Source: an uncultured bacterium
Lineage (GTDB): Bacteria > Cyanobacteriota > Vampirovibrionia > Gastranaerophilales > Gastranaerophilaceae
Assembly: GCA_902801985.1 (NCBI GenBank)
Contig: CADCKD010000003.1
Coordinates: 84,771-148,770, forward strand
Direction of reading: 5' to 3'
DNA length: 64,000 nt
A program made the position numbers and the translations under genes. Of the stretch, positions 4,731-18,954 are shown in pieces. Numbering within the stretch: the stretch's first letter is position 1; every line of letters begins with the position of its first letter. The notes under the pieces were generated by a model. That model made no database searches and was not told where the DNA came from. It saw only the letters and a program-made list of their open reading frames with translations.

Positions 4731-4822
4731 TTAACCTCACCCAAAACACCTCTCCCAGAATTAAGCGAGAGAAAAGTATCTTAACCTCACCCCTACCCCT
4801 CTCCTAGAATTAGGCGAGGGGT
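4731..4822. repeat. Two tandem CCTCACCC palindromic repeats
   Basis: Two direct copies, 4731-4780 and 4781-4822, share the pattern TTAACCTCACCC, then a C-rich CACCTCTCC/ACCCCTCTCC, then a short hairpin (CTCCTAGAATTAGGCGAG). The second copy is closest to the copies at 6383 and 6431. They sit between the pilin terminator and ilvC. Their high GC content contrasts with the surrounding AT-rich DNA. Confidence 0.7.
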
Positions 4823-4891: not shown

Positions 4892-5635
4892 CTACTTAGC
4901 AGTTGCTAATACAGCTTTTGCAGCATCTGTAGCAGGTTCTACTGTTGCATCGTGGAATACAACAGGGAAGATATCTGTCATGTGAGCAGAATCGTTAGGT
5001 ACTGTACAAGCTTGATCTGGGTTCAAAGTTGCTGTTGGAGAAGTTAATGCTTTTCCTGATGCATTTTTAGAACAAGTAACTTCTTTGTTAGGTAATGTTT
5101 TACCGTTAACATCAATAAATCCTAAGCAAGTTGGGTGACTTGTAATCCAAGCGTTGTTCATAACAGAACCAATTTCAAGAACACATTCTTGATTAGCAGC
5201 AGGTTTAGCTGCTGGCATTACAACAAGTGAACCATCAGCTAATGTATAGTAAACGACATCAGTCAAAGTACCTGCTGTTGTACTACTTATAGAATTGAAT
5301 GTTGGATTCTCAACATATGGTTTAGTTTTTGAAACTGTTTGACCTGTTAATGTACCGTTTAATACAGCACAAATTGATTTTGTACCATCATTTGCGTTAT
5401 CAGTTGCAGGGTCTGTACCACATGCTTTGTTTACAGCACCATAGTTGAAATCATATTGTGCTTCAGCCATCAAGCCAGCTTGGTTTAATGTTGATAATGA
5501 TTTTTTGTACTGTGATCTAAATTTTGCAGAGTTAGTGTTTGCAATCAATGTAGGAATAGTCATAGCAGCAACTACACCAATGATACCTAAAGTAATCAAT
5601 ACTTCTGCCAAAGTAAAACCGAATCTTTTTTTCAT
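4892..5635 (-). CDS. Type IV pilin-like (prepilin) protein
   Basis: 247 residues from the ATG at 5635. A GTG 12 bp upstream is in frame but overlaps the likely ribosome binding site (AAAGGTG), so I prefer the ATG. The N-terminus MKKRFG, then FTLAEVLITLGIIGVVAAM, is a class III signal: cleavage by prepilin peptidase after Gly6, Phe as N-methylated residue 1, and the conserved Glu5 at residue 11. The hydrophobic helix is followed by a roughly 220-residue extracytoplasmic domain, Ala/Thr-rich with several Cys that may pair. It could be a major or minor pilin or a type II pseudopilin. No other pilus gene is nearby, but it has its own strong terminator. Confidence 0.88.
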   Translation of the reverse strand: MKKRFGFTLAEVLITLGIIGVVAAMTIPTLIANTNSAKFRSQYKKSLSTLNQAGLMAEAQYDFNYGAVNKACGTDPATDNANDGTKSICAVLNGTLTGQTVSKTKPYVENPTFNSISSTTAGTLTDVVYYTLADGSLVVMPAAKPAANQECVLEIGSVMNNAWITSHPTCLGFIDVNGKTLPNKEVTCSKNASGKALTSPTATLNPDQACTVPNDSAHMTDIFPVVFHDATVEPATDAAKAVLATAK

Positions 5636-5926
5636 AATTTTTTTCACCTTTCTTTTTGAATGTAAATTATAATTACTCTTTACTATATGCTTTACACAAA
5701 GATTATATTACAGTTTTTTTCAAAACGTGTCAACCGAATATATGATTTTGTGTATGAGTATTAATCCCAAATAATTAATTTTGATAACATTAATCTTTAA
5801 AAATTAATTCTTAAGGATTAGTAGAAGGTACACTTAATGGCCCAAAAGCCTTATTTTATGGGAATTTTATTTTTTATAAGATTTTGTTAAGAAATATTAA
5901 CATTTCTTTTAGATGAATTGTCTTTT
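5636..5926. other. AT-rich intergenic region upstream of pilin
   Basis: Non-coding on both strands. On the minus strand a TATAAT (5666-5671) about 30 nt upstream of the pilin ATG is a possible -10 box; I see no convincing -35. The remainder (5700-5926) is AT-rich; I see no RNA gene, ORF or clear hairpin in it. Confidence 0.4.
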
Positions 5927-5927
5927 T

Positions 5928-6012
5928 ACCTCACCCCAACCCCTCTCCTAATATTAGGCGAGGGAAAAACTAAAAGCCTTCTCCTAAAGTGTAGGAGAAG
6001 GTTGGATGAGGT
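5928..6012. repeat. Head-to-head pair of CCTCACCC repeats, left flank of DUF559 gene
   Basis: The left half (5928-5967) runs ACCTCACCCCAACCCC, then CTCTCCTAATATTAGGCGAG. The right half (5976-6012) is in the opposite orientation: hairpin CCTTCTCCTA-AAGTG-TAGGAGAAGG, then TTGGATGAGGT. Together they form one large imperfect palindrome. The right edge is 6 nt from the 3' end of the DUF559 gene. Confidence 0.7.
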
Positions 6013-6017
6013 ATGTA

Positions 6018-6362
6018 TTATAAATCTCTTATAATATCCGAGAGTTTTAAATATACCCCTTCAATATTTTCATCAATTTCATTATTCCAAAATCTAATAA
6101 TTCGGTAGCCTCGAGATGTAAGATATTCGCTTCTTTTATTATCATAAGCTATATTTTGGGGCTCATTATGCTGACCGCCATCCAATTCAATAATTAATTT
6201 TAATTTTCTGCATGCAAAATCGACAATATAGTCACCTATTGGGTACTGTCTTACAAATTTAATTCCGTTAAATTGCTTGTTTCGAAGTAAATTCCATAAT
6301 TTTTGTTCTTGGGTAGTTGAATTATAACGTAATTCTCTAGCTTTTATATATTTATCTTCCAT
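6018..6362 (-). CDS. DUF559 / Vsr-like endonuclease-domain protein
   Basis: 114 residues. It has the DUF559 pattern: RELRYNSTTQEQKLWNLLR, then KFVRQYPIGDYIVDFACRK, KLIIELDGGQH and GYRIIRFWNNEI. DUF559 belongs to the PD-(D/E)xK / very-short-patch-repair fold; the likely catalytic residues are the Asp in YIVDF, the Glu in IIELDG, and the following Gln/His. Cellular role is unknown. An upstream GTG at 6392 is in frame but lies inside the neighbouring repeat; the ATG at 6362 has no ribosome binding site, but TATAAT ends 6 nt before it. The gene is boxed in on both sides by inverted CCTCACCC repeats, which suggests it moves or arose with them. Confidence 0.85.
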   Translation of the reverse strand: MEDKYIKARELRYNSTTQEQKLWNLLRNKQFNGIKFVRQYPIGDYIVDFACRKLKLIIELDGGQHNEPQNIAYDNKRSEYLTSRGYRIIRFWNNEIDENIEGVYLKLSDIIRDL

Positions 6363-6368
6363 AAATTT

Positions 6369-6374
6369 ATTATA
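6369..6374 (-). promoter_or_regulatory. -10 box 6 nt before the ATG (possible leaderless start)
   Basis: TATAAT on the minus strand, then AAATTT, then the ATG of the DUF559 gene. There is no Shine-Dalgarno. A transcript starting 6-7 nt after the -10 box would begin at the ATG. Confidence 0.5.
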
Positions 6375-6382
6375 TAACAATC

Positions 6383-6480
6383 TTAACCTCACCCCTACCC
6401 CTCTCCTAGAATTAGGCGAGGGAAAAGTATCTTAACCGCACCCCAACCCCTCTCCTAATATTAGGCGAGGGAAAAGTATT
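6383..6480. repeat. Two tandem CCTCACCC repeats, right flank of DUF559 gene
   Basis: Two direct copies, 6383-6430 and 6431-6480, run TTAACC(T/G)CACCCC(T/A)ACCCC, then the CTCTCCTA-AT-TTAGGCGAGGG hairpin, then AAAAGTAT. They face the opposite way to the copy at 5976-6012, so the nuclease gene lies between inward-facing ACCTCA ends. The first copy is nearly identical to 4781-4822. Confidence 0.75.
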
Positions 6481-6493
6481 TTGGCCTCTTTCA

Positions 6494-7468
6494 CTACCCC
6501 CTAACCTGGTTTTCTCCAAGGACAAAAATCTCCCAATTTTGTGAGGTTTCTGATACCGGCTTATAAAAATCTCGTACAAGTATTTGTTGTGTCTGTACGG
6601 GTGTATATCCTTTTTGTTTTAAATATTCTCCAAATCTTTCAGATTCTTTTGTGTATTTTTTTTGTTTAATAAATGGGTAAAAAGCATGCTTTTTTTTGCC
6701 TATTTCGCACAAAAGAGAGTTTAGTATATCGTCATAACTGTATTCATAGCCGCTATTTGTAGTTACATCTATTATATAATTTAAATTATCGCTTGTTGTT
6801 ATTGAAAAATAACCAAGTAACTTTTTGCTTTCTTCTAATATATAGCGAGTTTTGTATTCTTTTGTAAACCCTTGAAATAGCGGCTGTGTAAATTCTTTCG
6901 GGTTTCTTTGCAAAGAATTCTTGTATATAGAAACCAATTCTGAATTATATAATTCGGAAATTCTTTTGGCATCAGAATTTTGTGCATATAAAAGCCCGTT
7001 TTTCTTTAGTTCAGGGGTTGGTCTTTCTATTTTCCACAAAGTTTCTGATGCGCATTGTCTAAAGCCGCATCCATTAATGAATAAATCAAATAATTCTTCA
7101 TGACATTCGTCTATTGTGACGGTAAATGTTGCTGCTCCTTTTCCACCAAGTTTTTGGACTACAAATTCTACAAGGCTCTTACCTATTTCGTATCTGTTTT
7201 CTTTAAATATAAGCCTTGTAATATTAATTTTTTCGCAGTTGCCCGGGGTGCATTGTATCGTAATCAAACCCAAAATCTCTTTATCTTGCACTACAATAAA
7301 TGACTCAGATTTGAATTTGAATTGAAGCGGTAACATTGCATTAATAAATCCAACAGATTCTTGTGTTAGATTTTTTGCAAGTTTATCGTTCTCATCAGTA
7401 CAAAGGTACGATATGAGCTTCTTGAGTTTTGGAATATCAAAGCAAGTTAATCTTCTTATCTTTATCAT
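6494..7468 (-). CDS. GNAT-like two-domain protein, function unknown
   Basis: 324 residues. The N-terminal half (IRRLTCFDIPKLKKLI, then FIVVQDKEILGLITI) follows the beta-alpha-beta plan of GCN5-related N-acetyltransferases. The second half (about 165-290) shows a similar pattern, again with LGYFSIT. The acetyl-CoA P-loop (Q/RxxGxG/A) is not clear: the equivalent stretch reads ENRYEIGKSLVEF. So this may be a divergent or inactive acetyltransferase pair. The ATG at 7468 has no ribosome binding site, but a TATAAT ends 6 nt upstream. It lies between the repeat cluster and the glycosidase gene on the same strand. Confidence 0.6.
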   Translation of the reverse strand: MIKIRRLTCFDIPKLKKLISYLCTDENDKLAKNLTQESVGFINAMLPLQFKFKSESFIVVQDKEILGLITIQCTPGNCEKINITRLIFKENRYEIGKSLVEFVVQKLGGKGAATFTVTIDECHEELFDLFINGCGFRQCASETLWKIERPTPELKKNGLLYAQNSDAKRISELYNSELVSIYKNSLQRNPKEFTQPLFQGFTKEYKTRYILEESKKLLGYFSITTSDNLNYIIDVTTNSGYEYSYDDILNSLLCEIGKKKHAFYPFIKQKKYTKESERFGEYLKQKGYTPVQTQQILVRDFYKPVSETSQNWEIFVLGENQVRG

Positions 7469-18434: not shown

Positions 18435-18954
18435 TTACATAATACATGGTATAAGCATGTATTGTGTAAATCGGGGGCTTATGCAGCCCCCGTATCCCCT
18501 GCAGTCTATTTTCTTGTGCCGACAAGAAAATAGACAAAAAGAAGCTCCCGACCTGAACTCCGCTTGCTAATAAATTGTAATGCTCGAGTACAAGGCGGAT
18601 AACTCGCTAAAAAATAATGCTCAAACAAATCCGCCTTTGAAATTCTCTCGCATAACATTTATTGCCAGCTTCATAAAGGTCGGAGGGGTAATAATTCCCC
18701 CTCTCCTAAAGAATAGGAGAGGGGTAGGGGTGAGGTATGCAAACCGTTATTTAGGTTCGCCCTTAATTTTTGCCTGTAAGGCAAAAACGTAAGAACAAAT
18801 TATACTGATATTTTGTGAGCGGAACGCTGCCGGAGGCAGTGTAGTATAGTGCGAGTTTTTCTTTTTTGGTTCGTTTTTTCTTTTTGCTTCAAGACAAAAA
18901 GAAAAAATGAACAAATAATAAGCATAATACATGCTTATACCATGTATTATGTAA
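18435..18954. repeat. Hairpin-rich non-coding element with 32-bp inverted ends
   Basis: The outer ends 18435-18466 and 18923-18954 are inverted copies, 31 of 32 bases identical. The core of each end is also a palindrome by itself (CATAATACATG, 7-nt spacer, CATGTATTATG in the right copy). Inside are further hairpins: 18472-18492 (CGGGGGCT stem), 18504-18535 (14-bp perfect stem, 4-nt loop), 18697-18724 (CCTCACCC-family repeat) and 18767-18787 (TTTTTGCC stem). There is no ORF with a ribosome binding site. The whole region is probably a MITE-like or composite repeat inserted between the divergent glycosyltransferase and HU genes. Confidence 0.65.
18697..18736. repeat. CCTCACCC-family palindromic repeat, reverse orientation
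   Basis: CCCCTCTCCTA-AAGAA-TAGGAGAGGGG is a perfect 11-bp stem followed by TAGGGGTGAGGT. This is the reverse complement of the pattern at 4781, 6383 and 6431, so the family is not restricted to the cluster at 4.7-6.5 kb. It is nested in the inverted-end element. Confidence 0.7.

What the first reader, a model, noticed from the sequence alone, without database searches (positions are those of the whole stretch)
5928..6480. DUF559 nuclease gene boxed between inward-facing copies of a palindromic repeat family
Seen: the 114-residue DUF559 gene (6018-6362) begins 21 bp from repeats on one side and ends 6 bp from them on the other. The nearest copies (5976-6012 and 6383-6430) are in opposite orientation, so the ACCTCA ends point inward like terminal repeats. 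The gene itself seems to use a -10 box placed against the repeat. Known: DUF559 is a Vsr/PD-(D/E)xK-type nuclease domain; REP sequences elsewhere are spread by a dedicated enzyme (RAYT transposases). Inference: this nuclease could mobilise or process this palindrome family, a REP-nuclease partnership not built on a Y1 transposase.
Basis: partly seen in the sequence, partly recalled or inferred. Interest (0 to 1): 0.7.

Follow-up and report, generated by a model that had tools for sequence, protein, structure and literature searches.

The report
Mobile nuclease gene with palindromic ends
A small gene for a predicted DNA-cutting enzyme (DUF559) is boxed here, and in most of the related genes sampled across many bacterial phyla, by inward-facing copies of a palindromic repeat that fits E. 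coli's long-known BoxC element, and the pair or the bare repeat occupies sites that are empty in related genomes, so the enzyme is likely the missing machinery that spreads this repeat.

Summary
The DUF559 gene (6018-6362) lies between inward-facing palindromes, each a hairpin plus a mirror-image purine block, the published intrastrand-triplex/BoxC design. In a cross-phylum sample (best 80 of 571 loci), 62 of 75 scorable DUF559 genes have matching inverted repeats in both flanks (same-locus controls 4 of 769); in the genus 60 of 75 (controls 1 of 300). The unit is mobile: one site in prmA, and another in an M14 peptidase gene, is found empty, with the palindrome alone, or with palindrome+DUF559+palindrome in frame. 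Other cassettes lie in frame inside PriA, Mfd and an MmeI-type methylase. Palindromes are commoner in relatives with DUF559 (mean 10.3 vs 1.8 per genome). The model's top structure matches are a solved DUF559 protein and homing endonuclease I-Bth0305I. E. coli ycjD, still called hypothetical in a 2026 paper, is a member with a triplex motif beside it. That DUF559 itself moves the palindromes is inferred, not shown; exceptions exist (G055: 41 copies, no strong DUF559 match). My ten paper searches listed no title or abstract linking DUF559 with these repeats.

The parts
6018..6362 (-). DUF559 gene (114 aa), predicted Vsr/EDxHD-type PD-(D/E)XK nuclease
   Evidence: Pfam PF04480 E 2.5e-40; model pLDDT 89.9; top structure matches 3hrl and I-Bth0305I, Vsr at rank 7
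6387..6422 (-). palindrome/triplex-type repeat on the 5' side of the gene, facing it
   Evidence: hairpin folding
6436..6471 (-). second palindrome copy, outside the first
5977..6011 (+). variant palindrome (CCTTCTCC arms) on the 3' side, facing the gene
   Evidence: folding z -7.38
5929..5964 (-). palindrome copy outside the 3' one
6369..6374 (-). TATAAT, -10-like box between repeat and start codon
   Evidence: read directly from sequence; promoter function untested
4785..4821 (-). further copy of the palindrome, 1.2 kb from the cassette
18699..18735 (+). further copy of the palindrome, far from the cassette
6494..7468 (-). flanking 324-aa ORF (no Pfam family) used for the empty-site test
4892..5647 (-). 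flanking pilin-like ORF (label recalled from its N-terminus), other border of the empty-site test

Best explanation
The DUF559 gene at 6018-6362 sits between inverted copies of a BoxC-like (triplex-type) palindrome, and the unit is most likely a mobile element whose predicted Vsr-type nuclease would cut DNA at or beside the palindrome so that host repair copies the whole element, or the bare palindrome, into new sites. Shown by comparison: the inverted-repeat architecture in many phyla; palindrome, full element or nothing at one and the same site in related genomes; in-frame presence inside conserved genes; a direct repeat of host sequence around a few copies. Inferred: the nuclease recognises the palindrome, makes a nick or break, and bare palindromes are moved in trans as non-autonomous partners (as REPs are thought to depend on RAYTs). 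The varied length of the few flanking direct repeats (7, 26, 31 bp) and the homing-endonuclease fold favour break-and-repair copying over a DDE transposase; this step is a guess. Frames that stay open through the insert would let insertions persist without killing the host protein; that the host proteins still work is untested.
For: (1) Inverted repeats between the flanks, score 14 or more: cross-phylum 62 of 75 loci (80 fetched, 5 dropped for short or N-rich flanks) vs 4 of 769 same-locus control windows; genus/class 60 of 75 (of 80) vs 1 of 300; flanks of one locus match each other more often than flanks of different loci (62 of 75 vs 166 of 1108). (2) Triplex-type motif beside 61 of 78 cross-phylum and 44 of 75 genus genes, vs 13 of 1258 and 5 of 789 control windows; nearest motif inward 80 vs outward 25, and 66 vs 19. 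(3) prmA in 43 of 46 genomes: 30 aligned, 3 with the in-frame cassette, 4 with only a short palindrome at the same place, 23 empty; a fourth cassette, G024, by its open frame. (4) M14 peptidase gene: of 33 sequences read, 11 cassettes, 3 palindrome-only (one partial), 3 remnants, 14 without, 2 cut short; two more cassettes, L022 and L082, by their upstream flank. (5) Pfam: DUF559 interrupts PrmA, MmeI methylase, HI0933-like, PriA and Mfd domains in one open frame. (6) M14-site nucleases need 3 changes on the tree, prmA-site ones 1. (7) Hairpin counts: 36 genomes with strong DUF559 mean 10.3, 43 without mean 1.77, p 5e-9; in Y1-negative genomes 6.7 vs 1.6, 17 vs 28 genomes. (8) Fold. (9) 31-bp host repeat at cca (L083), 21 bp at the same site in L040, 26 bp at L032; one E. 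coli allele with and two without a 92-bp triplex insert between pstB and pstA, with 7-bp repeats.
Against: No cleavage or mobility was measured. Palindromes without a strong DUF559 match: G055 (41), G020 (11), G046 (7), G030 (7), G026 (5). ycjD is in 3365 of 5426 E. coli genomes but the triplex repeat in 5375. Among DUF559-negative genomes of the genus, palindromes go with a Y1 transposase (4 vs 8 genomes, mean 6.0 vs 0.25, p 0.008), though not over all 79 (p 0.20); among Y1-positive genomes of the genus the DUF559 effect is not significant (17 vs 4 genomes, 13.2 vs 6.0, p 0.53). 13 of 75 cross-phylum, 15 of 75 genus and 6 of 9 plasmid-collection loci score under 14. Most loci show no long flanking direct repeat: 12 bp or more in 7 of 58, four of these, by eye, inside repeat arrays. 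Genome counts are not corrected for kinship, and near-identical orthologues stand in the genus set.
Confidence: 0.62

Rival explanations
1. The nuclease is a homing endonuclease gene that invades pre-existing palindromes: the palindrome family is its target, spread by something else, and the gene is copied from palindrome to palindrome by break repair.
For: Fold and sequence profile close to I-Bth0305I; same-site occupancy in many species and, by the tree, probably more than one arrival at the M14 site; palindrome-only states at both sites.
Against: 23 of 30 prmA alleles and 14 of 33 M14 sequences show no palindrome at the site. Where both flanks carry the motif, both usually face the gene (31 of 41 and 27 of 37), which is an inverted pair rather than two halves of one copy. 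Palindromes are scarcer where DUF559 is absent.
Confidence: 0.2
2. Palindromes are moved by a Y1 (RAYT-like) or IS transposase, and DUF559 is a passenger or a beneficiary.
For: In DUF559-negative genomes of the genus palindromes go with Y1 (p 0.008, 4 vs 8 genomes), and in Y1-positive ones of the genus DUF559 makes no significant difference; G055 has a 41-copy MITE-like family without DUF559.
Against: The own genome has no PF01797 match yet 12 hairpins; G055 has no Y1 match either; the DUF559 effect holds in Y1-negative genomes (17 vs 28 genomes, 6.7 vs 1.6); the stretch between the palindromes holds the DUF559 frame and little else.
Confidence: 0.12
3. DUF559 is a resident repair or defence nuclease (Vsr-like) and palindromes gather near it because they regulate or terminate its transcription.
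For: A DUF559 protein of Caulobacter (VsrA) is linked to a cytosine methyltransferase (PMC12907096, passages); Vsr-like fold (rank 7); a -10-like box sits next to the repeat.
Against: Cassettes with palindromes lie inside unrelated genes that are uninterrupted in relatives or split known domains; the same repeats occur far from any strong DUF559 match. PADLOC gives three weak partial hits, one to a homing endonuclease.
Confidence: 0.05
4. Chance or base-composition artefact.
For: None beyond the G/C-rich simple look of the repeats.
Against: Same-locus controls 4 of 769 and 1 of 300; motif controls 13 of 1258 and 5 of 789; reversed patterns 0 and 1, although the looser pattern matched its reversed control more often in some genomes (own: 10 vs 7).
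Confidence: 0.01

Closest known systems
BoxC / PIT / intrastrand triplex motif (Holder et al. 2015, PMC4666352)
   Same: Pyrimidine arm, purine arm, mirror purine block; the TTA second loop of its type A stands in the repeat behind ycjD; many copies in many bacteria including cyanobacteria and Neisseria.
   Different: That paper reports no mobility gene near the repeats (sections 18 and 20 part 1 read) and its text has no 'endonuclease' or 'ycjD'; it finds the E. coli repeats always between genes, whereas here such repeats flank a nuclease gene and also lie inside genes.
REP/REPIN with RAYT transposase (recalled; papers seen only as listing)
   Same: Palindromes with an asymmetric head, dispersed singly and as inverted pairs around one enzyme gene.
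   Different: Enzyme is a PD-(D/E)XK-type nuclease, not a Y1 HUH transposase; the own genome has no PF01797 match.
EDxHD homing endonuclease I-Bth0305I
   Same: Similar fold of the catalytic domain (Foldseek E 5.8e-6; profile E 1.5e-4).
   Different: The window protein has 114 residues and no second domain in Pfam; no intein domain in the split frames scanned; palindromic ends. Introns were not searched for.
Rickettsia palindromic elements
   Same: Palindromes inserted in frame in unrelated coding genes (PMC10969869, passages).
   Different: About 150 bp; no nuclease mentioned in the passages seen; sequence not compared, so a link was not tested.
Vsr mismatch endonuclease
   Same: Related fold (1vsr, E 1.4e-2); a YcjD profile finds Vsr (PMC1189080, passages).
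   Different: NCBIfam vsr model far under cut-off (16.3 vs 97.85 bits); a linked methyltransferase was not sought.

Membership tests
DUF559 (PF04480) | Pfam score over curated cut-off | tested here: met
   137.2 vs 20.6 bits
EDxHD / Vsr-like nuclease | fold and conserved acidic/His residues | tested here: met
   Foldseek matches 3hrl, 3r3p, 1vsr; invariant E19, D48, E59, D61, H65, D74 in 45 sequences; residue-by-residue match to Vsr not made, catalysis not tested
BoxC / intrastrand triplex repeat | pyrimidine arm, purine arm, mirror purine block, short loops | tested here: met
   motif scan on window copies, my own rule; the published consensus letters were not read, only its description
REP-RAYT system | Y1/HUH transposase partner | tested here: not met
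   no PF01797 in own genome
Insertion sequence with DDE transposase | transposase gene and fixed-length target duplication | tested here: not met
   the frame between the palindromes is DUF559; flanking repeats vary (7, 26, 31 bp) and are absent in most loci
Homing endonuclease element | occupies one site in some relatives, empty in others | tested here: met
   prmA and M14 sites
Homing endonuclease element | cleaves the empty allele | not testable with these tools
   needs protein
Intein or intron | splicing domains or ribozyme | tested here: inconclusive
   Pfam scans of the split host frames list no intein domain; no Rfam search was run
Rickettsia palindromic element | sequence match to RPE families | not tested
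   no RPE sequence was fetched

The most novel reading that the evidence does not exclude
DUF559 is the mobilising enzyme of a pan-bacterial class of transposable elements, unlike any known transposon: a single Vsr-like nuclease between triplex-forming palindromes, which spawns BoxC-type repeats as its non-autonomous offspring and writes itself in frame into host proteins. E. coli ycjD is the K-12 representative.
Probability: 0.5. Interest if true: 0.95.

Novelty: new variant of a known kind. Interest (0 to 1): 0.85.

Why it matters
BoxC/triplex repeats have been known in E. coli since the 1990s and in over 260 bacterial genomes, and the 2015 study found no agent near them that could spread them (PMC4666352). 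A nuclease partner makes that question testable in K-12, suggests a role for a very large family of unknown proteins, and would add a second enzyme class to palindrome-enzyme partnerships. In-frame insertion into conserved genes such as prmA, priA and mfd would also be a source of new protein segments.

Tried and rejected
Rejected: chance (controls); RAYT as the necessary partner. A clean ycjD empty site in E. coli was not found: the three ycjD-less strains I opened carry an efflux operon between sapF and fabI, as a 2026 paper also reports (PMC12817139, passages). The yihR-yihS comparison (L343 vs L348, L349) was too diverged to place borders; the zntA-tusA site gave no clean absent allele in 20 listed rows. 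Literature: searches (capped listings) showed no title or abstract linking DUF559 to palindromes. DUF559 occurs in 14 held papers; I looked at passages in three of them: a Thermosynechococcus paper assigning a DUF559 gene to EDxHD homing endonucleases (PMC9403480), a Legionella paper with transposase/DUF559 segments as recombination hotspots (PMC12308824), the Caulobacter paper (PMC12907096); the other 11 were seen only as listing. Of the 8 papers with ycjD I saw passages in two. Not done: Rfam, metagenome or viral-contig scans, kinship-corrected tests, DUF559 subfamilies outside the one peptide pattern used by the genome scan.

Full report
OBSERVATION. The gene, the repeats and their orientation are as described. 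DUF559 hits Pfam with E 2.5e-40. Repeats lie at 5929-5964, 5977-6011, 6387-6422 and 6436-6471; the innermost two face the gene. All four fold better than nearly all shuffles (0, 0, 4 and 2 of 200 shuffles as good; z -2.4 to -7.4). In the own genome 9 pattern matches exist, 3 within 95 bp of the DUF559 match and a fourth 1.2 kb away; the reversed pattern has none. A looser pattern matched 10 times in the own genome against 7 for its reversed control, so I rely on the stricter ones.

WHAT THE REPEAT IS. That is the design of the intrastrand triplex motif, earlier BoxC or PIT (PMC4666352; abstract, search passages, sections 15 and 18 and part 1 of section 20 read). The paper counts 23 copies in K-12, speaks of over 260 bacterial genomes, found no mobility gene near the repeats, and has no 'endonuclease' or 'ycjD' in its text. 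I did not see its consensus letters, but its type A second loop, TTA, stands in the repeat behind ycjD.

CROSS-PHYLUM TEST. The set is thus one subfamily (pattern [IV][VI]E[LVI]DG[GSE][QI]H). Between the two flanks, 62 of 75 scorable loci have an inverted repeat scoring 14 or more, against 4 of 769 same-locus windows; in the genus/class set 60 of 75 against 1 of 300; among nine plasmid-collection loci 3 of 9. Flanks of different loci pair less often (166 of 1108), so the two ends of one element tend to share a palindrome type. The triplex-type motif is beside 61 of 78 and 44 of 75 genes, against 13 of 1258 and 5 of 789 windows; nearest motifs face inward 80:25 and 66:19. Some genus loci are near-identical orthologues, so not all are independent.

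MOBILITY. prmA was found in 43 of 46 genomes. Of 30 aligned, three hold palindrome-DUF559-palindrome in frame at one place (own genome G000, G031, G008), four hold only a short palindrome there (G045, G021, G014, G020), 23 are empty; a fourth full copy, G024, is judged by its open frame. An M14 peptidase gene was found in 44 of 46 genomes. Of 33 sequences read, 11 hold a cassette at one site, three only a palindrome (one partial), three a remnant, 14 nothing, and two are cut short; two more cassettes (L022, L082) reach contig ends and are placed by their upstream flank. Pfam shows DUF559 interrupting PrmA, an MmeI-type methylase, a HI0933-like protein, PriA (another phylum) and Mfd (a Rickettsiales genome), and lying in frame with M14, UvrD, GHMP kinase, SMC/RecF and PolyA_pol (CCA-enzyme) domains. 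On a poorly resolved tree (9 starred of 71 inner branches) M14-site nucleases need three label changes and prmA-site ones one, so the M14 site was probably reached more than once. For the window element itself, two of the 29 other loci compared (G018, G036) have the same two neighbours in the same order without DUF559; G036 has a palindrome there. In the rest the neighbours differ or lie the other way round.

BORDERS. At cca, 31 bp of host sequence including a start codon stand on both sides of the element in G033, with 21 bp at the same site in G045; at L032 26 bp of a hairpin are repeated. Over 58 loci, 7 have a repeat of 12 bp or more, against 1 of 997 controls, but four of the seven lie, by eye, in palindrome arrays. 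In E. coli, one allele with and two without a triplex repeat between pstB and pstA differ by 92 bp, with AACCGTG on both sides of the insert. Whether that is a gain or a loss is not known.

GENOME COUNTS. Hairpins CCCTCYCC..GGRGAGGG number 447 in 79 relatives; the reversed pattern 1. Genomes with a strong DUF559 match: 36, mean 10.3, 4 with none; without: 43, mean 1.8, 33 with none. In Y1-negative genomes the difference holds (6.7 vs 1.6). In Y1-positive genomes it holds over all 79 (13.5 vs 2.1, p 0.0007) but not within the genus (13.2 vs 6.0, p 0.53, only 4 without). Against it: G055 with 41 hairpins of a MITE-like family and no DUF559 found, four more genomes with 5-11, and a Y1 link among DUF559-negative genomes of the genus.

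ENZYME. The model (pLDDT 89.9) matches 3hrl (a DUF559 relative by sequence, E 2e-37) and homing endonuclease I-Bth0305I; Vsr is rank 7 (E 0.014), behind PvuRts1I and two mitoribosomal chains. E19, D48, E59, D61, H65 are invariant in 45 sequences.

E. COLI. ycjD (DUF559) is in 3365 of 5426 complete genomes, and a 46-bp triplex repeat query in 5375, median 18 places. In three ycjD-less strains opened the locus holds an efflux operon (PMC12817139, passages).

VERDICT. A mobile unit of nuclease and palindromes is shown by comparison. The nuclease as its engine is the best reading (0.62), not proved.

Noticed in passing
G055 (loci L314-L333): A MITE-like family with a CCCTCTCCCAATGGGAGAGGG core, part of 41 hairpins, several at contig ends, in a genome with no DUF559 or Y1 match.
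   Followed up: partly
E. coli collection: Triplex-repeat copy number varies strongly among the 24 listed records: 1-4 places in GN04096, FDAARGOS_1304, CFT073 and MS8324, 14-28 in 19 others (a small contig with 1 aside); may follow ycjD absence, not tested.
   Followed up: no
L030, L078, L118 (G016) and L139: DUF559 matches with a stop codon inside: decayed copies beside intact ones.
   Followed up: no
relatives: A weak DUF559 match in an ORF of about 1045 aa occurs in many relatives, DUF559-cassette-free ones included; probably a resident protein of another subfamily, its flanks were not examined.
   Followed up: no
L126, L127 (cyanobacterial plasmids): DUF559 genes among CCCCCTAAATCCCC..GGGG type palindromes, a different palindrome sequence with a similar layout.
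   Followed up: no
window 4735-4821: Second cluster of the same repeat about 1.1 kb from the cassette, upstream of a gene that looks like ilvC (label recalled).
   Followed up: no
genus DUF559-negative genomes: Palindrome number goes with presence of a Y1 transposase (4 vs 8 genomes).
   Followed up: partly
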